Assembly (NCBI RefSeq): GCF_038396675.1
Contig: NC_088934.1
Span: 48,042,001 to 48,106,000, forward strand
Source of the DNA: Hydra vulgaris
Taxonomy: Eukaryota > Cnidaria > Hydrozoa > Anthoathecata > Hydridae
Direction of reading: 5' to 3'
Length of the DNA: 64,000 nt
Positions 1,671 through 61,970 of the stretch are shown here, piece by piece; position 1 is the first letter of the stretch; every line of letters begins with the position of its first letter. The notes under the pieces were generated by a model. The model worked only from the letters and a program-made list of their open reading frames with translations. It was not told the DNA's origin and did no database searches. The position numbers and the translations under genes were made by a program.

Positions 1671-4467
1671 ATTGTAAAATATAATTGGTTATTGTAATAT
1701 TTTTAAGCGGCAAAATATTAAGAGAAAAAAACCAAAGCATGAATTATGCGTCTTTAATCAGATGCATGATCATATATTAAAATAAGTGTATACGTCATCA
1801 GCAATGTTGACGCGTTTACACTAATACATTAATTAGGTAATCTAATTAATAGTATGAATCGCACATTCTAACGATGTTGGGCCAACGCAACGCGCAACAT
1901 TGTTCTACCGATTTATCAACGTATGTGTGCTAGCTGGGAAATCACATTTCAGAAACCCATATAATTTATCGTTTAAAATGTCATTCTTAAGCGTCAATAA
2001 CTAATGGCTTTGTACCGAAATTAAATCTCCTAGTATTATATTTACATAAATCTCTTAAAAATAGACTGTAAATATTAAAAAGAATAATTTTTAGAATTGT
2101 TAGTAACACAATGGAGTACTACTCTATAGCTTTAGGGCTACAAATACTGTTTGAAGTTACTCCATATTTATTTTTATAAAACACTCGCTTTATTTTTAAT
2201 ATCAACTATTTTTTCAATAATTTTGTTTACTGAAGTAAAAAGCTTATGGATTGTAGTTTACAAAATAATAATACTTACCGATAGACATATTGAAAAAGAT
2301 ACCTTAAAACTTATGAACTTTAAAAATTAATAAATTACTTTGACATCCAAAAAACCCGAATTTCGACCCTTCGCAGACCTAATGATGTCAAACGATTTAA
2401 ATTTTTTTTCAAGACATAGCTCGAGTAGTAACTGTTTTATCATATGAAAGTGGTTGTCACAGCACTTAAGATGCCTCCACAATTACAATTTTTTTATGGT
2501 GCCCCACAAGTTACTTAAAGAAAAAAGCATGATTCTGTATGACCACTTTTTCATGTTTTTCATTGAAAACACAAAGAAATCTTGTTAGCACCAATTTTAG
2601 TGTGGCATTTAGTTTACTGCTTTAATTAAATGGAAATTAAAAATGGATCAATTAGCTTCAATTAGCTTCAATTGGCTTCAATTAGCTTCAGAAAAAATGG
2701 GTCATTTTAAAAGTTTAACGGTTCCGAAGTTATTGAATATAGCATAATTATGTTTTGTTGTTTGAATATAAAATAATGATGTTTTGTGGTATATAACCAA
2801 TATAAATCTTAAAGTATCTAGTTTGTCTAAGAAAACATAGTATTAAAAAAAAAAAAGGTGATGTCTAAAAAAAATCAGAAAAGAAAGTGATGTCCAACAA
2901 AAATCAGAATATGCTGACAAAATCATGCTAATTCCGAGTAAAAGAATTTGAATAATTTTTAAATCGCCTTAACTACATCGAGTAAATAAAAGAGTGTTTC
3001 TTTCACTGACGTTGTTATTTGTTTCATATGACGTTATTTGTTTCATATGACGTTGTTATTTGTTTCATATGACGTTGTTAGTTTATTTATTAGTATAAAA
3101 TAGTTTGACAATTTATCCAAAATCCATAACCAAACCACAGAAATGAGAAAAAAACAATTTTAGAGCAAAAACTTCAAAATGTCTAACTGACTGTATCCAA
3201 AAAGTCTTCAAAGCAACAATGGTGAAAAAGAAAGCTGAAACTTTCTAATTTAATGCTTATCCGCGGTGGAAAGACTATCAGGTCATCCTGAACACCATAA
3301 TAACCAGAAGAAAATAAAAATAAATATAAAATATATATAAAATATCAACAAACAAATTAACATTGTAAACAACACAAAATAAGCTGTTTCAATATTTAAT
3401 GTAAAAACATACCTGATAAAATTTTAATCATTCCTATTTTAACTTTTTTTTATTTACCAATCTTATACGCTGTTTAAGCTACTTTAATCAAATTTTTGTA
3501 TCGCGTATAAAATAACAATTAAAGTTCTTTCAATAATCTGCATTGTCTAACAACTCTAAGGTTACCAGTTGCTAGGGTAACCAGTAGTTTTTTTTTTTGC
3601 ATAGGAAAAGTGTGCCAAAATATAAGCCATACTAAAATTAAAACCCAGAGGCAACTGTAAAAAATTACTAACTAAGTGTACTTGATAACTAGGAACAAAT
3701 ATTTAGTTAATCTAGACTTTAACTTAATCTCCATCGTAAAAAAAGGACATATGTTAACCCTAAACAACGCGCAACATTATTAAAACATGGTTCTTATAGA
3801 GTTTTCCCTTGGTATTTCAAATTTTTTTTAAAAAATATAAAATACCAACAGACAAAAAAAAACTTAAAATTTAACGCAATATACAAATATTTAAGGAAAA
3901 TAATAATTAAAAGCATTTTTTTGCCGCCATCTTGAAAAATGAGAAACTTGCATTTGCACATCTTGCACGTTTCAATATACGACTAGGCATGATGTATTGT
4001 TACCAGGGTTGTAAATAAATTTTTTTTTATTCGAACTTATTTAGTTTTGATTTGTAGTAGGTAATTAAACTACGCGACCGTTTTAAAATGTTCGCTATAT
4101 GTGCACAATTTTCTTAACTTATATTGGTAGTCTTATAAAAGATTTTTTATCTTAGAAAAACCTTATCAGAACCAATTTTTAATCTTAGATAATATAAGAT
4201 AGTAGAAAGGACGATTGCAAACTAAAAAAAATTTTAGGGAGGCTTATTGCGAGCTCCATTTTTACTTTGTCAGCACATACCAGGCCCATATTAAAAAACC
4301 TAATTTGAATTTATCAAACTTTAGGGTTTTACTTGATAAATGTCTTTAAATAGATTGGCTAGTCTCCAAACCCTCGAAAATTGCAATTTATTTAGCAAAC
4401 TTTTTATAAAAAGTCTTTAACTAGCTAAACTTTAGTTGTTATTACCAGTATACACACAAAACTCAAT
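1671..4467. other. Non-coding stretch with two small tandem repeats
   Basis: No gene is supported in 2.8 kb. There are four copies of a 10-bp unit ATTAGCTTCA at 2651-2690 (third copy with one change), and three to four copies of a roughly 19-22-bp unit containing TTTGTTTCATATGACGTT at about 3008-3080. Around 1880-1945 and 3760-3785 two segments share ACGCGCAACATT. The first ends in GCTAGCTGGGAAA, loosely like the CCCAGTGGG-type ends found at 16 and 42 kb, but this is too weak to call. Confidence 0.4.
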
Positions 4468-4470
4468 GTT

Positions 4471-5233
4471 TAAAAAATTTATAAAATTTATAAAATTTAT
4501 AAACTTATTTATAAAATTTATAAACTTATTTATAAAATTTATAAAATTTATAAAATTTATAAAATTTATAAAATTTATAAAATTTATAAAATTTATAAAA
4601 TTTATAAAATTTATAAAATTTATAAAATTTATAAAATTTATAAAATTTATAAAATTTATAAAATTTATAAAATTTATAAAATTTATAAAATTTATAAAAT
4701 TTATAAAATTTATAAAATTTATAAAATTTATAAAATTTATAAAATTTATAAAATTTATAAAATTTATAAAATTTATAAAATTTATAAAATTTATAAAATT
4801 TATAAAATTTATAAAATTTATAAAATTTATAAAATTTATAAAATTTATAAAATTTATAAAATTTATAAAATTTATAAAATTTATAAAATTTATAAAATTT
4901 ATAAAATTTATAAAATTTATAAAATTTATAAAATTTATAAAATTTATAAAATTTATAAAATTTATAAAATTTATAAAATTTATAAAATTTATAAAATTTA
5001 TAAAATTTATAAAATTTATAAAATTTATAAAATTTATAAAATTTATAAAATTTATAAAATTTATAAAATTTATAAAATTTATAAAATTTATAAAATTTAT
5101 AAAATTTATAAAATTTATAAAATTTATAAAATTTATAAAATTTATATAATTTATAAAATTTATAAAATTTATAAAATTTATAAAATTTATAAAATTTATA
5201 AAATTTATAAAATTTATAAAATTTATAAAATTT
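4471..5233. repeat. Satellite array of a 9-bp unit (AAATTTATA)n
   Basis: About 85 nearly perfect tandem copies of AAATTTATA. The left edge carries variant units with CTTATTT (4500-4535), as expected for older edge copies, and there is one variant at 5143-5149. Because 9 is a multiple of 3, both strands stay open for more than 230 codons (KFI and YKF repeats). Those frames are by-products of the period, not genes. Confidence 0.95.
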
Positions 5234-5317
5234 AAGAACAGAGCAATAATAAATTAGTAAAAACACTTATCTAAAATTAGATAAGTGTTTTTACTAATTT
5301 ATTATAGCTCTGTTCTT
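5234..5317. repeat. 84-bp near-perfect palindrome abutting the satellite
   Basis: Arms of 41 bp (5234-5274 and 5277-5317) pair with a single mismatch around a 2-base centre. The left arm begins AAGAACAGAGCAATAATAAA. The satellite ends exactly where the palindrome starts. It could be a very small foldback element or a replication-generated hairpin. No target duplication was recognised. Confidence 0.85.
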
Positions 5318-54084: not shown

Positions 54085-56108
54085 GCTTCATACAATGAGT
54101 TTAAATATTGCTTCTTGGAAGAAACTTTGTAAACTTTGTAAGCAAAAGATCGTTAGAAAATAAGATCTTAAAGAAGAGAAGCAATATCAGGATCAATAAG
54201 ATGAGGTTTATTTAAAATCATCATTCAAATTGAAAAGACTGGAGATCAACGAAGAACTCGAAAAGTTTAATATATCTGTTCTGAAAACTCATTCAAAGTC
54301 ATTGAAAAATATACTCTCAGAAGAAAAGCGAAAAGTTGCGCGCATTAACGAAATTGTAAGTAACGTTACTAGAAAAATTAAAAGTCAATGATCCCTCAAA
54401 ACTGTGTTATGAAACAAATAACATAAAAAAAAGGCTGAAAACTTTTATGAAGTTATGATAAAAGAAAAAATTGTTATTACTACTGTTCAACTTTTGATAT
54501 TGGCACCCCCAAGATTGTCGATATTAGAAGTACAATATAACTTTACAGTTACAAAATACCAAGCAAAGATGGCTAGACAAGTTTTTTAATAAAAAATGAT
54601 TGTTAGCTATTTCTACGTTGTATGAAGGTAAAGTCTTACAAAAAGAAAAAGAAGATTCGGTTTTAATTGCTTTATGACTTGAGTAATTTCTGTAGAACTA
54701 TGCTGGAAAAAAAGATTTTGTTAGCATTCTAAAGAATGTCCATAAAAAAACACAAGTGCTTTCGTGTTATTCAAAGAAACTATATGTATTATACAAAGAA
54801 AAAAATCCAGAAATACGAATAAGTTTCTTAAAATTTGCGTCACTTAGATTAAAGTGGTGCATTTTGTCAGATGCAAGTAATACACATTCTGTTTATGTTT
54901 GTTCTTATCACCAAAGTGTCATACTGCTAGTGGATGCCTTAAATATTGGACTAAAGTATAAGAATTTACTATCGAAAACTGTTTGCTTTGTAAAGAACAA
55001 AAAATTGCACAGTGTGATAATTGTCCTGGTAAAGAACGGCTCACCAAATATTTGTTTAAGATTTTTGGAGAACACGAAGATGATTTTGAGGTACACTCCA
55101 AGCAATGACAAACTATTGATCATGCAGCACTATTGAGTTTAACAGCAGATTTTCCAAAGTTTGTTGAACTATTAGTATTTTCCTTTGAAAAGCTACAAAA
55201 AAGATGAAAAAATACTATAAAGATGATAAAGGTGTACTGAAACATATTTCTTAGTGTTTTTTATCATACGACATCACATATGATATAACTTATGCGTAAA
55301 AAATATTCCAACTAACCATACCAATATTAAAAACAAAATTTTCCAATCTGTCCAAATTACATTTATTTGCTGATGGTTGCGCAGGACAGTACAAAAATTG
55401 TAAAAGCTTATACAAATTATGCCAACGAGAGAGGAAATTTGCCCTAAAAGTTAAATGACCACGCCTCACAGAAAGTCACCATGCGATATGATTGGCGGCA
55501 CTGTAAAAAGTTTAACAGTGAAAGAAAGTTTAAAACCACCATACAGAAACTAAAATCTCACATCAGAAGCTATGAATGAATTTTCTATTGAGAAAATCAA
55601 GGTTGTTAACTTAATTTAAATAAAGGGATTGGACTTACAATTGCAACATAAAGAACAACTCTACCTTTTACTCATAGCTTTCATCAATTTATACATCTTG
55701 CAGATAAAAGGGTTGGGGCGAAAAGTGTAATACAGACACTAATTATACAATAATCCACTATCTTAAAAGAAACAAGATATATTTCAACCTGATACTGTCA
55801 GTTTAGGAGATTATATAGCTGTAGTCTATTATGATAAGTGGTGGATCGGCATTTTAACTAAAACCAACTAAGAAAAAGTAGATGCTAAAGTTAAGTTTCT
55901 CCACCCAAAAGGTCCATCAACTTTTTTTTAACTGGCCTGAAAGAGATGACTACTGTTTTATTCCCAACATCAACATATTGAAAAAACTATTTGTTCCACA
56001 AGCTTGCTCTTGTTCCGGTAAAAACTATGTGCTTAAAAAAGCTGAAATAGAAGAAGTACAAATAAAATGGCTACAATATTGTGAACTATTACAAACTCAG
56101 TCAAAATA
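54085..56108 (+). pseudogene. Transposon-like gene of the outer unit (DGCAGQYKN family)
   Basis: Segments in order. LCKLCKQKI (CxxC, about 54130) and INEELEKFNISVLKTHSKSL at about 54240. KNPEIRISFLKFASLRLKWC and SDASNTHSVYVCSYHQS (54800-54920). ADGCAGQYKNCKSL at about 55368-55410. A C-terminal domain with GDYIAVVYYDKWWIGILTKT, FLHPKGPS and NWPERDDYCFIPNINILKKL, ending LLQTQSK at 56108. Frame changes and stops occur throughout. I recognise the order of these motifs as a recurrent multi-copy family in cnidarian genomes, not a characterised enzyme. The spaced Asp and Cys/His residues would suit a nuclease-like fold, which is speculation. The minus frames at 54908-55123 are shadows. Confidence 0.7.
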
Positions 56109-56237
56109 ACTTACATCTTTGTTACCTATAAAAATCTTGTATATTTAAGTAACTTTTTAAATTACGATGAACTTTAAAAAAAAAAAATTTATTTACAAAA
56201 ATTGTTTTTAGGAATTTCTTGAAAAAGTAATATCTTT

Positions 56238-56742
56238 GAAATTAAAGTTCTATATGTTTTAGTTGCTTTTCCAGTGCCTAGTAAGGTTATAAGCAGCTAA
56301 AAATATTAACAGCAAAATAAAAAATAAAAATTAGACGGGGTGTTTTGATATATTGGGCCCTAAAGTTGGTTTATAGAAACTAATTGTTTTATTAACTTTT
56401 AAGCATGTTCCTTTATTATTTCAGGATTTTAAGTACATTTATTGACTTCACCATCAAAAAAACATTGCATATGTTTATTTTCATATCTTTGCCATTTTAA
56501 TTTCTTACATTTTTATGTCTTATTTTTTTAATGAAAACATTTTTTCAGAATGTTATGAAAACTGGGTCATTTTGGGAAGCCAGGTCAATATTAAAATTAC
56601 AGTATCTTGTCAACCGCTCAACATTTTTAGCTAAAATTTTGCATGCATTATTTTTTTATAATTAGAAATGTGTCAAAATATAACACAAAAAGAAAACACA
56701 TAGTTTAATGGACTGGGTGATTTGATGTAGAATTACCTATTA
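56238..56742 (+). repeat. Right inverted end of the outer unit
   Basis: Inverted copy of 44809-45305. It follows the gene's stop by 130 bp. Confidence 0.8.
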
Positions 56743-57162
56743 TCAATATAACATTCACTCAAGTTAAAAAATACTTTTAATGTTTTTTCTTTCCATTTTG
56801 TTTCCGTTATTGTTTTATAAAATTTTTATTTTTTTTAATTTTTTAAATTTTAAGCTAAATAAGCATTAGTTTAAAAAAAATTATAATTAAACGTCTGTTC
56901 ACTTAATATAAAAAGTTTTAATTACATTTGTATAAATAACTTTTAAATAATCTTAAAAATAACTGAAATATATTTTTAAAGGGAAGATTGATGGATGTTA
57001 TTATGGATTTCCCACAAGTAAAAAAAATGGTCTACAACCACTTTAGTTTCCAATACATTGAATCTAGAATGCGTTCAATAAAGAACTTTCAAAGTAGTTT
57101 ATTTTGTTGTTACGTATTAATTAAAAACTAAATCTCGAATTTAATGCGTCACAAATTTAGTG
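56743..57162. other. Non-coding gap
   Basis: AT-rich, no feature. TTTATTTTGTTG at about 57098 resembles TTTATTTTAATT just after the poly(A) at 59030, a possible but weak target-duplication pair. Confidence 0.35.
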
Positions 57163-57200
57163 ACGGAAAAAAACACATACTGAAACTTTTTAGTCCCTGT
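57163..57200 (+). other. Spliced-leader (Hydra SL-B type) sequence at the start of a retrocopy
   Basis: 38 bases beginning ACGGAAAAAAACACATACTG and ending TTTAGTCCCTGT equal, from memory, the first 38 nt of the Hydra SL-B trans-spliced leader. The last few leader bases are absent. No donor GT or Sm-site arrangement of an SL RNA gene follows, so this is not an SL RNA gene. It reads as the 5' end of a copied trans-spliced transcript. Confidence 0.7.
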
Positions 57201-57224
57201 ATTTTTTCTATCCATTTTTCTGCA

Positions 57225-57375
57225 ACGGGTTGCCTGTAAGGCAACTTTAGTTTGTAGGATTTTTTAAAGTTGCCTGTAAGGCAATCACTGATAGTATAGT
57301 TTTATTTGTCTTGAGTGTTTAACCTTTTCCTTACATTGGGTTGCTGTAAGGCAACTTTAGTTTGTAAGGGCATTA
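57225..57375 (+). repeat. Triplicated hairpin-forming segment in the 5' UTR
   Basis: GTTGCCTGTAAGGCAACTTT occurs at about 57229, a shorter TTGCCTGTAAGGCAA at about 57271, and GTTGCTGTAAGGCAACTTTA at about 57342. Two of the copies continue into AGTTTGTA. Each can form a TTGCC/GGCAA stem. Confidence 0.8.
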
Positions 57376-57487
57376 AGTTGTTTCAAAACAACTTTTGTGT
57401 AGAGAAGATTGTGTATGTGTGAAATACGAGCGTTGAAGGGAAATACTTAATCTTCAAACCCTGACCACGCTATAAACTAATCTTAAT

Positions 57488-58689
57488 ATGGAAACATCGA
57501 AAATTAAAATAGACTTGAACGTCTCTATTAAAAGCTATGCTCAAGCTATAGCAACTAATTTTCATTAAAAATTGTCTAATGAATTTAGCACATTGAAAAG
57601 AACCCTTTTGTGTGAAATAACAGAAAATAAAACTGAACCTAATATTTTATTCGCTCTTGAAAACGCCAATTTAGATCACGATCTGGAAGGCCTGCAAATT
57701 ATTTGTAAAGGGACAATGATCGAACTCGTCATGAAAACTGAAAAGTCAAAATCGTTGATTTTTGAAAATGGACTTTTAATTAATGGTGTAACCCACCATT
57801 TCTATAATTCTACTCCTACAAGAAACTTATGCAAACGAGTTGCAGTATCGGTAATGAGTTTGCCTCTCGAAAAAAAATATTTACCTGTCGGTGTGGCTCT
57901 TTAGCAACTCGGATATGGGAAACATAGACACACAAGAGCAGTATATCGCAAAAAGCCTAAAAACGGAACATCCTACTATACAGGAATTCTAGTTGTCATG
58001 ATAAATCAATTAATTAAACCAATACCAAGATCTTTAAAACTATGCGGATATAACGTCAAGATATCTATGCCGGACAAAACAAAGAAGATAACCTAAAACC
58101 AAAAGAAAATTTTAAAGAAGTGACCGAAGAACCTAAAAAAAAGGTAACGGAAACTAATGAACCAGAAACATCGGAAGAAATACCTGAACCAACAATTAAA
58201 TTTTCTAAACCACAAGAATCAGAAGCCCCTATGGTGATATGCCAAAACTCTCTCGAAAACCAAATTATAAACAACGATACCAATAACTTAGATAAAACAA
58301 AACCAAAGACACCCGAACAAATACCACAACCGCTTGAAATAAATTCTCAAACACAAGAAACAGAAGCTCACATGGAAGAAAGCCAAAGTTTTAACAATAA
58401 TAATGTTGAAAACAAAATCGAACCTCACAACGACAACATCGTAAATGAAGCAAACATAACGCTAAAAGAAAAAGTAGAAGAACCAGAAAAAAAAATCGAA
58501 CTTCCCTCAGAATATCTTTGCTTAGATTATATTGGGAGGCATATTTACAACTTAAATTTATTCTACGGCTTCGATAAAACAAAATGCTCGGAAGATGAAC
58601 TATTAATATTTAAGGCATACAAAAAAGCAGAATATGATTCAAAATCAGAGAAAATTCGAAAGGCAAATAAAAAGGAACAAAGCAAATAA
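57488..58689 (+). pseudogene. Non-LTR retrotransposon ORF1-like (nucleic-acid chaperone) protein
   Basis: Starts METSKIKIDLNVSIKSYAQA. Two in-frame stops (TAA 57566-57568, TAG 57902-57904) and a frameshift near 58070 break it. The core has VAVSVMSLPLEKKYLPVGVA, QLGYGKH and IKPIPRSLKLCGYNVKIS, then YAGQNKEDN. That order resembles the RNA-binding region before the zinc knuckles of LINE ORF1 proteins ('..P.FL...G..V.V.Y.GQ..'), but CCHC knuckles are absent. The C-terminal 190 residues are Glu/Pro/Lys-rich and disordered, with four loosely repeated PEQIPQP/EEIPEP segments, ending with a basic helix. The minus frames at 58065 and 58391 are shadows. Confidence 0.6.
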
Positions 58690-59059
58690 GATACCCGTCG
58701 GACAATCAAGGGATTATATTAAAAGCAATACACAAATCCAAAATAGTTTTTCATACAATCATGATTACTGGACTTAAAACTAAAACAAAAAACAAAAATA
58801 ATACTTCAGAAATTAAAACTATAAAAATTATATTAGAAAATAAAAAATATTGAAAAAATTAAAAAAAAAAAATTGTAAAAATTAATAAAAAACAAATTAA
58901 AAAAAAAATACAATATCCATAAGCTTTAAACTAAGATAAAAAAACAAAGGTATAACATTAAAAAGTAAAACTACAAAAATTACCAAAAAAATTTTTATAA
59001 AATTTAAAAAAAAAAAAAAAAAAAAAAAGTTTATTTTAATTTTTTTTTTTTTGATTTTT

Positions 59060-59290
59060 GTTATATTTTTACAACCCCAAGGTCAATAGGACTACAACAG
59101 TCTAGGACTCTTGTTTTTTTGAATACAACTCTGTTTTAACTCTTTAACTTTGAAACTCAAACCACGTGATGGGTTGCTGGGTGGAAAAACTAGTTAATTA
59201 CAGTACTACCTGGGATTTGGTGAGGATTAAACTTGGAACTTCACACAAAGCAAGCGCTTTACCACTACACCACTACCGCATGATAGCGTA
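59060..59290 (-). mobile_element. tRNA-derived SINE, inverted
   Basis: On minus, ATGCGGTAGTGGTGTAGTGG TAAAGCGCTTGC gives the A-box region and a decayed B box (CCAAGTTTAATCCTC) follows. The body runs to about 59075. The head matches those at 30.6 and 35.7 kb. Confidence 0.6.
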
Positions 59291-60230
59291 CATAGCGTTA
59301 GTTATATTTAGAGCTGTTTGTAGTTTTGAAAGTCACGGTTTCGAATATCTTTTACATTTATAATTATGGAAGTTACATTAATGAACTTGTAACGTCGATA
59401 AACATTTTCCTTTTTTTGATAACAATTGATTCATTGTTTTACAATATATAACTAAATAATAAAGTTAATGTTTCTGTTCAAAAAAAAATTTAACATTAAA
59501 AAATCACTATTCTATCTGATTGGCTATAATTTATTGTATTCTATTTTAGTATTTATGTTAGTGCTTACATATGAATACTATTCATTTGTAAGCACTTACA
59601 TAAAAATTATAATTATTTTTTTTTTTTTTATAGAAATTAAAAATTGGACTTTTTTTTTTTTTTTATTAATTTTGAATTACTAAATATGTATTTTTACAAG
59701 TATAATTTTAGATGTATTTTTTAAAATTTTAAAAATTATTGGACATTAACAATTATTTTATTTGTACATAATTTTTTTTTTTTTAAAGTCATTTATTGAA
59801 AGCGTATTTGTAATGTTTTTATCAAATCTTTTCTAATTTAGGATAACTAAAGACCTTTAAAGAAAGTTTTTAAGTAATTGCCACTTTAGTATATGCTCGT
59901 GACTTGTGACCGTGACTCTGAGCGTGACTTGTGACCGTGACTTGAGCTCGTGACCGTGACCCCTACCCCCTCCTCCACCCTTAAGATGGTGATTTTCAAC
60001 TTATAGTCAGTTTTTTGATGAATTTATTCTGCTAGTTGGGTATTTGAGACAATTCAGTTAAAAAAAAAAATTTTTTTAAGGACTCAGACGGTACTTTTTA
60101 AGCATTTCTCCCCCCTCCTCGTTTTTTTGTGGAATTGCCTTTGATTATATGTCTTTATTGTAAATATATAAAACGGAAAAAAATATTTTTAGATATTAAA
60201 AACAAACCATAATTCTTAAATACTGTTTTA
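59291..60230. other. Non-coding stretch with short repeats
   Basis: A 17-bp inverted repeat with one mismatch (AGTGCTTACATATGAAT) lies at about 59559-59597. A GTGACTTGTGACCGTGACT-type short tandem repeat lies at about 59895-59970. No gene. Confidence 0.45.
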
Positions 60231-61970
60231 ATGGAGGAACAAGACGCAACTCAACTTGGTATACAAGCAGTTGGAAACGACCCCGCTTTGTGGAAGAGAG
60301 TTATATCCAAAGTCGAACGCAATCTAGTCATACCAAATTACCCCACTCAAAACCCTGCACTTTTTTTAGAGATTATACAAACAGAAAAGTTCACCCCACC
60401 GTTATTTAAGAAACTTCTCTCAACGGAGAATAGATCAGCAGAAAATGGATAATATGAAACTGTCAAATCTTTCGTTTTTTTCTGCTCTATTTTTGGACGA
60501 AGGCATAGTTTTGGCTCTGGGTTTTAGTCTTTCCTCTTGATACTGAATGGTGAAATAAAAGATATTAGGCAAAAACTAAGAGAAAAGATTAAAAGCCATC
60601 AATCCAATTTTCAGCACAGAAATCACTACATTGTCAGAAAGACAGCTTTTGAAACCTTGAAAAATCAAACCTGGATCAATTCAGAACTTGAAAAGTCAAT
60701 AAGAAATGTGGCATCTAAGTGGTATGAAATTTTACGCTGCATCCTGGACGTCGCTCTCTATTTAGCTTTAACTAGTCTAAGCTTTTGAGGTATGTTTGCA
60801 GTTTATGTTCATAAAGTAACTTTAATATTGCTTGGAATATTAATCTAGATGAGTTCATTATGGCATGTGGCGAAAGTGTTATTGCTATTGTCAAAGTGAT
60901 CCACACAAACATTTATTTTTCCGTTATTATTGATGAAACTATGGATGTCTCATTCTAAACAAATCACTTTTGTTCTTCGATTTGTCCAGTAGTGAAAAAA
61001 CATTTTCTGAAGATAGAATATCTGGAGATTAAAAAGGGTTTTGACATTGCAAAGCTAATTATAGACGTTTTGGATCAAAACCAAATTGAATTTTAACTGT
61101 AAAGGCCAGGGCCATGATAATGGGTTTAACATGATTGTTTTGTATAAAGGAGTGCAGTACAATCATAATTCTCTAAAAAAATGCTCATACTTTGTACATG
61201 CCATGCTGTTGCATTTTCTCCATCTGGCTGGTGTTCATTCTGTGGAATCCTCTACTGTAGTCAAGATTTATTTTGGTAACATCCAATTATTGTATAACCT
61301 TTTTAGTAGTAGCTTCATGCGCTGGAAAATTTTGACTGAGGCAACTGAGCTGTCTTTTGGAGTGCGCGCATAGGTTCTGTGCAACCATTGTCAAAACGAC
61401 CTAAAGAAATACTGAATTCATTTAAACTGACTTTAGTTAAGTTAGTTAAAACTGATTGCATCTTGGTTAACTTAGTTTGGGTTCAAAAATGATTTTGTTA
61501 AGAAAAGGAAAAGAAAAAGGAAAACACTTCACGGCGAATCGATAAGTATACCCGATTTCCACGAAAAAGAAACAAAGAGTTTTAAATGCGAATTTATTTA
61601 ATGCTGCTCTTAACACGGTACACCACTAGCATATAAGAAGCAGAGCGGACACTGCTAAAAAGACAACGGACATATTTTCGTTCATTTTTAGTGATGAAGA
61701 AAAACTTAGTGAGAAAGAAAAATGCAAATCCCTAGCAAATCTCTACGTAGATGATGTAAAAGAAGAAGAGTTGATTAAAGAAATCCGCCATTTAGATGTT
61801 CATGCAGAAAAAAAGAAACCTTTTATCTATCAAGTTCCAAAACTAAAACTACCAAAAAGGTCTTCAGTCAAAGTTTTTTTCCATCTGCATTTTGCTTCGC
61901 ATTTTCAATACAATCCTAGATTCAGTGGCTAAAGGAGAGCAGGCATTAAATACAAATTGGATCAACTATG
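60231..61970 (+). pseudogene. hAT-type transposase, DUF4371 class, broken
   Basis: Frames in series. The N-terminus is MEEQDATQLGIQAVGNDPAL and LWKRVISKVERN. A region with IRQKLREKIKSHQSNFQHRN follows (TTF-type, zinc-finger area). Then IDETMDVSF and ITFVLRFV (catalytic Asp region of DUF4371), IDVLDQNQ, NCKGQGHDNGFNM with YKGVQ, and CSYFVHAMLLHFLHLAGVHS. Later SSSFMRWKILTEATELSFGV, and a decayed C-terminal part reaching about 61970. The pattern 'CRGQGYDNGANM..Y.GVQ..I' is characteristic of this hAT group (also the ZMYM-like and P52rIPK-like proteins). At least five frame changes or stops. The terminal inverted repeats were not found. Confidence 0.8.

What the first reader, a model, noticed from the sequence alone, without database searches (positions are those of the whole stretch)
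57163..59028. A retrotransposon ORF1 copy that begins with the Hydra spliced leader
The first 38 bases match the SL-B leader, and the copy ends in A23. It suggests that transcripts of this ORF1 are trans-spliced and then copied back into the genome, or that the element has captured the leader as a fixed 5' end. The second would be a way to gain a trans-spliced-like cap structure without splicing. The leader stops 8 or so bases early, which favours fusion or template switching over normal trans-splicing.
Basis: partly seen in the sequence, partly recalled or inferred. Interest (0 to 1): 0.85.

Follow-up and report, generated by a model that had tools for sequence, protein, structure and literature searches.

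The report
Retroelement carrying Hydra spliced-leader gene start
A jumping element scattered through the Hydra genome begins with 40 letters of the spliced-leader RNA gene, apparently because its lineage lives inside those genes and borrows their start, not because its messages were trans-spliced.

Summary
In detail: window 57163-57200 is an exact copy of nt 1-38 of the published Hydra SL-B1 leader, heading a decayed, A23-tailed ORF1 element. In 21 copies compared, leader sequence sits in the same place (partly replaced in two). The family's match is nt 1-40; the window copy has G39A. Copies are about 1.85 kb, ORF1-only, scattered, some with target-site duplications. It most likely came from neither trans-splicing nor template switching. 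In a 5S/SL-B1 gene array of the same genome (C1:60.6 Mb), a diverged ORF1-only relative sits inside an SL-B1 RNA gene exactly between leader nt 40 and 41, and the SL gene resumes 1,869 bp later. Longer inserts in that array (5.9-6.1 kb) and a relative in a second SL/5S array carry an APE-type endonuclease ORF. Best reading: a target-specific LINE lineage of SL RNA genes, transcribed from the SL promoter; its ORF1-only derivative carried the co-transcribed 40 nt when it spread. The kind is known in other phyla (SLACS, NeSL); this host, endonuclease type and dispersed derivative look new in what I could search. Reverse-transcriptase phylogeny and transcription were not tested.

The parts
57096..57105 (+). 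left copy of probable target-site duplication AGTTTATTTT
   Evidence: 10-nt direct repeat with 59028-59037, abutting the A-tail
57106..57162 (+). 57 extra bases between duplication and leader; origin unknown (5' filler or 5' transduction)
   Evidence: sequence; five other copies have 3-26 extra bases in this place
57163..57202 (+). SL-B1 leader nt 1-40 (nt 1-38 exact, G39A) = 5' part of an SL RNA gene carried by the element
57203..57487 (+). element 5'UTR with two diverged 42-nt repeats (57215-57256, 57325-57366)
   Evidence: a related UTR follows SL leader nt 40 in L099
57488..58777 (+). decayed ORF1 (421 codons in intact copies), stops and frameshifts
   Evidence: C15 rows (window 57488-58774)
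58778..59005 (+). A-rich 3'UTR
59006..59028 (+). A23 tail
59028..59037 (+). right copy of probable target-site duplication (first A shared with tail)

Best explanation
The window copy belongs to a dispersed, ORF1-only (non-autonomous) derivative of a non-LTR retrotransposon lineage that inserts into the multicopy spliced-leader RNA genes of Hydra. An ancestor sat in an SL-B1 gene between leader nt 40 and 41. Its RNA was made from the SL RNA promoter and so began with the first 40 nt of the leader. That co-transcribed target sequence became the element's 5' end and was carried along when ORF1-only RNA was reverse transcribed at unrelated sites by target-primed reverse transcription, probably with enzymes supplied in trans by full-length relatives. 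Shown: fixed 40-nt head in scattered copies; a relative inside an SL-B1 gene at exactly that breakpoint; relatives with an APE endonuclease ORF inside or among SL genes; A-tails and, in some copies, duplications. Inferred: transcription from the SL promoter, trans-mobilisation, and that the dispersed family descends from such a resident (its direct resident parent was not found).
For: (1) Same leader and same 40-nt join in nearly all copies compared while 5' flanks look unrelated. (2) L052:1301-1540 (200 nt of SL promoter side + leader nt 1-40) matches 100% over all 240 nt at C1:60605618-60605857(-), and the DNA there reads GACACT|leader 1-40|TTCATACCG...CAACGGGCTGCCTGTAAGGC; leader plus UTR is 82.6% identical to L025 over 132 columns. 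(3) The SL gene resumes at nt 41 at C1:60603748 (98%), so the insert is 1,869 bp, about the size of the dispersed element, with none of the 150 scored endonuclease matches inside. (4) An ORF1 homolog (63% over residues 3-271, open frame 473 aa) lies in that insert. (5) At C1:49037584 an SL-B1 gene is interrupted after nt 53 by a relative with a decayed ORF1 (43-51% aa in two pieces) followed by an APE endonuclease start (PF03372, 5.2e-7). (6) 130 of 150 scored endonuclease matches (626 candidates) lie in four clusters, 48 of them in the two C1 clusters that hold 5S/SL genes; at C1:60.6 Mb they interleave with SL promoters. (7) Repeats of 10 nt or more between the two flanks in 5 of 17 testable dispersed copies against 1 of 272 mismatched pairs. 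(8) ORF1 kept open: 7 full-length stop-free copies among 99 scored; dN/dS 0.23 between two intact copies.
Against: The resident found at nt 40|41 is only 75% identical in the leader+UTR match and 63% in ORF1, so it is a cousin; no array resident above 90% was seen among 40 scored of 484. Two inserts of 5,102 and 4,028 bp held none of the scored endonuclease matches. 82 of 150 endonuclease matches lie in C2 and C8 clusters not shown to be SL arrays; the 240 nt read from C2 hold no SL leader. No transcript data. The reverse transcriptase was not read.
Confidence: 0.82

Rival explanations
1. The ORF1 RNA was once trans-spliced to SL-B1 and copied back; the last six leader bases were later lost, and the SL-headed copy then founded the family.
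For: Trans-splicing and copying back does seem to happen in Hydra: other LINE copies carry the complete 46-nt leader, often followed by what look like relicts of earlier leaders. 30.9% (AEP) and 29.7% (105) of TE Iso-Seq reads start with an SL (PMC12220107, passage).
Against: Join at nt 40, no AG before the body, and a relative placed inside an SL gene at the same nt 40|41. This rival must explain that coincidence.
Confidence: 0.08
2. Template switching: reverse transcriptase jumped from ORF1 RNA to SL RNA at nt 40 in one founding event; the array copy arose later by leader-guided insertion or recombination.
For: Single shared non-canonical join; chimeric LINE/snRNA retrocopies are known elsewhere (recalled).
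Against: Does not by itself explain the clean split of the SL gene at nt 40|41 or the endonuclease-bearing relatives among SL genes.
Confidence: 0.06
3. ORF1 is a host gene family of the SL arrays that uses the SL promoter, and the dispersed copies are its processed retrocopies.
For: Clustered open frames of 448-500 aa.
Against: In the one array relative read, ORF1 is followed by an APE endonuclease ORF, and the clusters hold many such ORFs, some with open frames of 1,181-1,200 aa.
Confidence: 0.03

Closest known systems
SLACS / CZAR / CRE (trypanosomatid SL gene retrotransposons) and NeSL (nematodes)
   Same: Non-LTR elements resident in SL RNA genes (spliced leader exons named as targets, nematode NeSL called spliced leader-specific, in PMC4640811, passages; SLACS/CZAR/CRE targets recalled).
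   Different: NeSL and CRE clades encode a restriction-like endonuclease (PMC4640811, passages); the Hydra array relative has an APE-type endonuclease start. Dispersed SL-headed ORF1-only copies are not described for them in the passages I read.
Tx1-clade target-specific LINEs (Keno in U2 snRNA genes, including hydra)
   Same: APE endonuclease, small-RNA gene target, animal hosts including hydra (PMC4640811, passages; Keno's place in Tx1 recalled).
   Different: Target here is the SL RNA gene. No RT tree was made, so clade membership is a lead only.
HAL1 (half-L1) type ORF1-only elements of mammals (recalled)
   Same: ORF1 without ORF2, A-tail, dispersed.
   Different: The head here is a fixed piece of a small-RNA gene.
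SL-tagged retrogenes with relict leaders in dinoflagellates
   Same: DNA-encoded leader at the 5' end of retrocopies (PMC6050394, passages).
   Different: There the leader is put down to trans-splicing of the mRNA; here it stops at nt 40 and matches a break inside an SL gene.
Pr77 of trypanosomatid LINEs/SINEs
   Same: A short shared 5' end spread with elements and bound by factors of SL RNA gene transcription (PMC8190864, passages).
   Different: Pr77 is a tested promoter; the 40-nt head here is untested.

Membership tests
Target-specific APE-type non-LTR retrotransposon (lineage of the array relatives) | APE endonuclease encoded downstream of ORF1 | tested here: met
   L100, 76 aa, PF03372 E 5.2e-7 above cutoff; PDB L1 ORF2 endonucleases about 1.6e-5; one relative read
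Target-specific APE-type non-LTR retrotransposon (lineage of the array relatives) | Copies concentrated in one kind of multicopy gene | tested here: met
   48 of 150 scored endonuclease matches in two C1 clusters that hold 5S/SL genes; a further 82 in C2 and C8 clusters whose target was not settled
Target-specific APE-type non-LTR retrotransposon (lineage of the array relatives) | Reverse transcriptase domain in ORF2 | not tested
   only open-frame lengths seen (1,186 and 1,189 aa for the two longest in the C1 clusters, up to 1,200 aa elsewhere)
Target-specific APE-type non-LTR retrotransposon (the window element itself) | own ORF2 | tested here: not met
   18 of 21 copies run past ORF1 into the common 3' region of a 1.85-kb element; no endonuclease match downstream of the leader in the 20 fetched loci or anywhere in the window, one upstream on the other strand in L021
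Tx1 clade | position in RT phylogeny | not tested
   no RT sequence fetched
SLACS/CZAR/CRE/NeSL | insertion in SL RNA gene | tested here: met
   L099, L030, L031 read as sequence; further places by coordinates
SLACS/CZAR/CRE/NeSL | restriction-like endonuclease | tested here: not met
   APE endonuclease start instead, in the one array relative read
Retrocopy of a trans-spliced mRNA | complete leader ending at its splice junction (nt 46) | tested here: not met
   join at nt 40 in the family
ORF1-only non-autonomous LINE derivative | ORF1 under selection, no ORF2, A-tail, TSD | tested here: met
   TSD clear in a minority of copies only

The most novel reading that the evidence does not exclude
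The encoded leader works for the element: LINEs seated in SL genes use the SL promoter so that their mRNAs leave the gene already starting with the leader of host trans-spliced mRNAs, without splicing. The head is kept unchanged because it pays, for capping, translation or 5' joining at the target. In the nt-53 type the leader plus a 5' splice site is kept, so LINE transcripts might even donate their leader.
Probability: 0.3. Interest if true: 0.87.

Novelty: new variant of a known kind. Interest (0 to 1): 0.72.

Why it matters
It points to a retrotransposon lineage living in the spliced-leader RNA genes of a cnidarian, with an endonuclease type other than that of the known SL-gene elements, and to a derivative that carried the start of the SL gene to many chromosomes. 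It also warns that an SL at the 5' end of a Hydra TE transcript is not by itself proof of trans-splicing, since some copies encode the leader; the inference from Iso-Seq reads in PMC12220107 (passage) should be rechecked against such copies. And it makes a testable case of target-gene promoter use by LINEs.

Tried and rejected
Trans-splicing and template switching as the source of the leader: rejected as main reading (see rivals). Cryptic 5' splice site at nt 38 (GTAATA) of the leader: considered because the window shows 38 nt; dropped once the family showed 40 nt and an SL-gene resident with the same break. Host gene family: dropped after the endonuclease finding. Rfam on window 56000-60500 gave nothing up to E 1. 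Pfam gave only two matches below cutoff for part of ORF1 and none for an intact ORF1; PDB none. AlphaFold of ORF1 with two sequences was useless (mean pLDDT 32.5). A 24-nt leader pattern in viral contigs and genome contigs: 0 matches. Constraint on the leader: groups of copies differ in 1 of 40 leader columns against 41 of 280 UTR columns (one-sided p 0.019); I chose the groups by eye, so this is only a hint, and private changes are not rarer in the leader (0.042 for nt 9-40 against 0.029). U2 as target of the C2 cluster: L101 shows a 12-nt string that I recall as U2-like after an A-tail; Rfam gave no U2 match there; left open.

Not answered by the tool: whether re-spliced forms of this family exist genome-wide, positions of other SL types, and positions of U2 genes.

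Full report
Observation. Window 57163-57200 is an exact match to nt 1-38 of the Hydra SL-B1 leader (leader as printed in PMC7986045, passages), followed by a 5'UTR, a decayed ORF1 and A23. No other site in the window comes near (next best 28 of 46). The genome held for the window has 15 contigs and 911.5 Mb; this fits the H. vulgaris AEP size implied in PMC12220107 (334 Mb = 36.6%, passage), an inference.

A fixed head. Querying the own genome with the first 238 bases scored 40 of 484 candidates; 27 of 40 (window included) start at leader nt 1 and 37 of 40 by nt 12. I fetched 20 of them with flanks. Thirteen of 21 copies (window included) start with ACGG at the same place; a fourteenth, L024, does so with a gap inside the leader, and L014 and L016 have the leader's start replaced. 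The flanks before it look unrelated. The join is leader nt 1-40, then TTTTTC: exact in 14 of 21, with one or two changes in L013, L021, L023, with G39A in W, L012 and L027, altered in L028. Eighteen of 21 copies run past ORF1 into the common 3' region, ending about 1.85 kb from the leader where uninterrupted; L013, L017 and L026 do not in the matched part. No endonuclease match lies downstream of the leader in the 20 loci or anywhere in the window; L021 has one upstream on the other strand. ORF1 is stop-free over its full length in 7 copies among 99 scored. dN/dS is 0.23 between two intact copies, 0.28-0.54 between these and the other copies compared, and 0.58-0.71 between four close pairs with decayed members. 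Flank repeats of 10 nt or more occur in 5 of 17 testable copies, against 1 of 272 mismatched pairs; a sixth (13 nt, L025) was seen with another end call. In these six, 3-57 extra bases lie between duplication and leader. So the leader is DNA-encoded and inherited.

Where the leader comes from. Exact 46-nt SL-B1 occurs 92 times. Twenty-one lie in a tandem array at C1:60.53-60.56 Mb; in those displayed the leader is followed by GTAGGC, and a 5S rRNA gene lies in the repeat (L052). With 200 nt of SL promoter side plus leader nt 1-40 as query, one of 40 scored places (515 candidates) is C1:60605618-60605857(-), 100% over all 240 nt. The family's leader and 5'UTR had been found to start at that spot (75%). 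The fetched DNA (L099) reads SL promoter side, leader nt 1-40, then a family-like 5'UTR; leader plus UTR is 82.6% identical to L025 over 132 columns. Querying with the SL gene from nt 41 on, it resumes at C1:60603748 (98%). The SL gene is thus split at nt 40|41 by 1,869 bp holding an ORF1 homolog (63%) and none of the 150 scored endonuclease matches. This is the 40-nt break of the dispersed family.

The lineage. At C1:49037584 (L030) a second SL-B1 gene, also near a 5S gene, is interrupted after nt 53 by a relative whose decayed ORF1 is 43-51% identical in two pieces; L031 holds a shortened one. Just behind L030's ORF1 an ORF opens with an APE endonuclease (PF03372, 5.2e-7; L1 ORF2 in PDB, 1.6e-5). 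Of 150 scored matches to that 76-aa peptide (626 candidates), 35 lie at C1:60.5-61.0 Mb and 13 at C1:48.9-49.07 Mb (the two clusters with SL/5S genes), 65 at C2:20.4-21.4 Mb, 17 at C8:18.9-20.8 Mb, 3 at C1:52.4 Mb and 17 elsewhere. At C1:60.6 Mb they interleave with SL promoters.

Mechanism, with status. Insertion into SL genes: shown. Transcription from the SL promoter starting at +1: inferred from position. Carrying the 40 nt into new sites as part of the RNA: inferred, and the simplest account of the shared break. Target-primed reverse transcription: inferred from A-tails and duplications. Enzymes in trans: inferred from the lack of ORF2. The bottom strand at the nt 40|41 site reads CTTATT/ACAC, which would suit an APE endonuclease that nicks T-rich/A sites (recalled preference).

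Against this reading. The resident is a cousin, not the parent. Only the joins of L099, L030 and L031 were read as sequence; BLAST ends define the others. The C2 and C8 clusters were not shown to be SL arrays; the 240 nt of L101 from C2 hold no SL leader. The fixity of the leader between groups is weak statistics.

Literature. Nine searches in the open-access library listed no paper whose title or abstract start reports an SL-gene LINE or an SL-headed element in Hydra (one search listed 10 of 23); I read passages of six papers, no whole paper. Repbase and subscription journals were not searched, so an entry there is possible. SL exons are named targets of other non-LTR elements, and Keno (APE, U2 target) is reported from hydra (PMC4640811, passages).

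Verdict. Observation confirmed, interpretation partly right: fixed leader yes, trans-splicing most likely no. A new variant of a known kind, with a useful warning for reading SL ends of TE transcripts.

Noticed in passing
L054, L056, L057, L069, L078, L083, L085, L090, L094 (behind the 46-nt leader): A different LINE group (5'UTR motif around GGTAATCCACTG...GTGGTAGCCCTCC) carries whole SL-B1 leaders followed by what look like relicts of earlier ones, mostly TCCCTGTGTAATAAG, as if the encoded leader's own CTTTTTAG served as acceptor for a new leader in a later cycle. L083 has two whole leaders plus two relicts. By pattern, 14 of 33 motif-bearing contexts had a relict (contexts of 49 of the 92 sites viewed, 21 array sites left out, 22 not fetched).
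   Followed up: partly
L055, L064, L097, L062, L076, L080: Relicts or neighbours belong to other leader types (e.g. ...TATTTGTGTTAATAAG...TGTGTTTACAAG), which suggests that successive cycles used different SL RNAs.
   Followed up: no
5' flanks of the 33 motif-bearing contexts among L029, L053-L098: In 23 of 33 the 5' flank is rich in (TA)n, a possible target preference.
   Followed up: no
G000 C2:20.39-21.38 Mb and C8:18.9-20.8 Mb; L101: Dense clusters of relatives with open ORF1 and ORF2 frames; target not identified. L101 shows an A-tail followed by GTATCTGTTCTT (recalled as U2-like) and a family-like 5'UTR.
   Followed up: partly
L014, L009 (upstream of the leader): Inverted pieces of SL leaders lie just upstream of the leader, as if 5' joining involved inversion.
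   Followed up: no
L015, L020, L025 (5' flanks): Bases before the leader look like short repeated copies of the target sequence.
   Followed up: no
window about 4450-5240: A-rich tandem repeat with a 9-base step, seen only as matches to the element's A-rich tail.
   Followed up: no
G000 C5:39208423-39210336: A close family copy and a diverged relative, both matching from leader nt 1, lie head to tail 1.7 kb apart.
   Followed up: no
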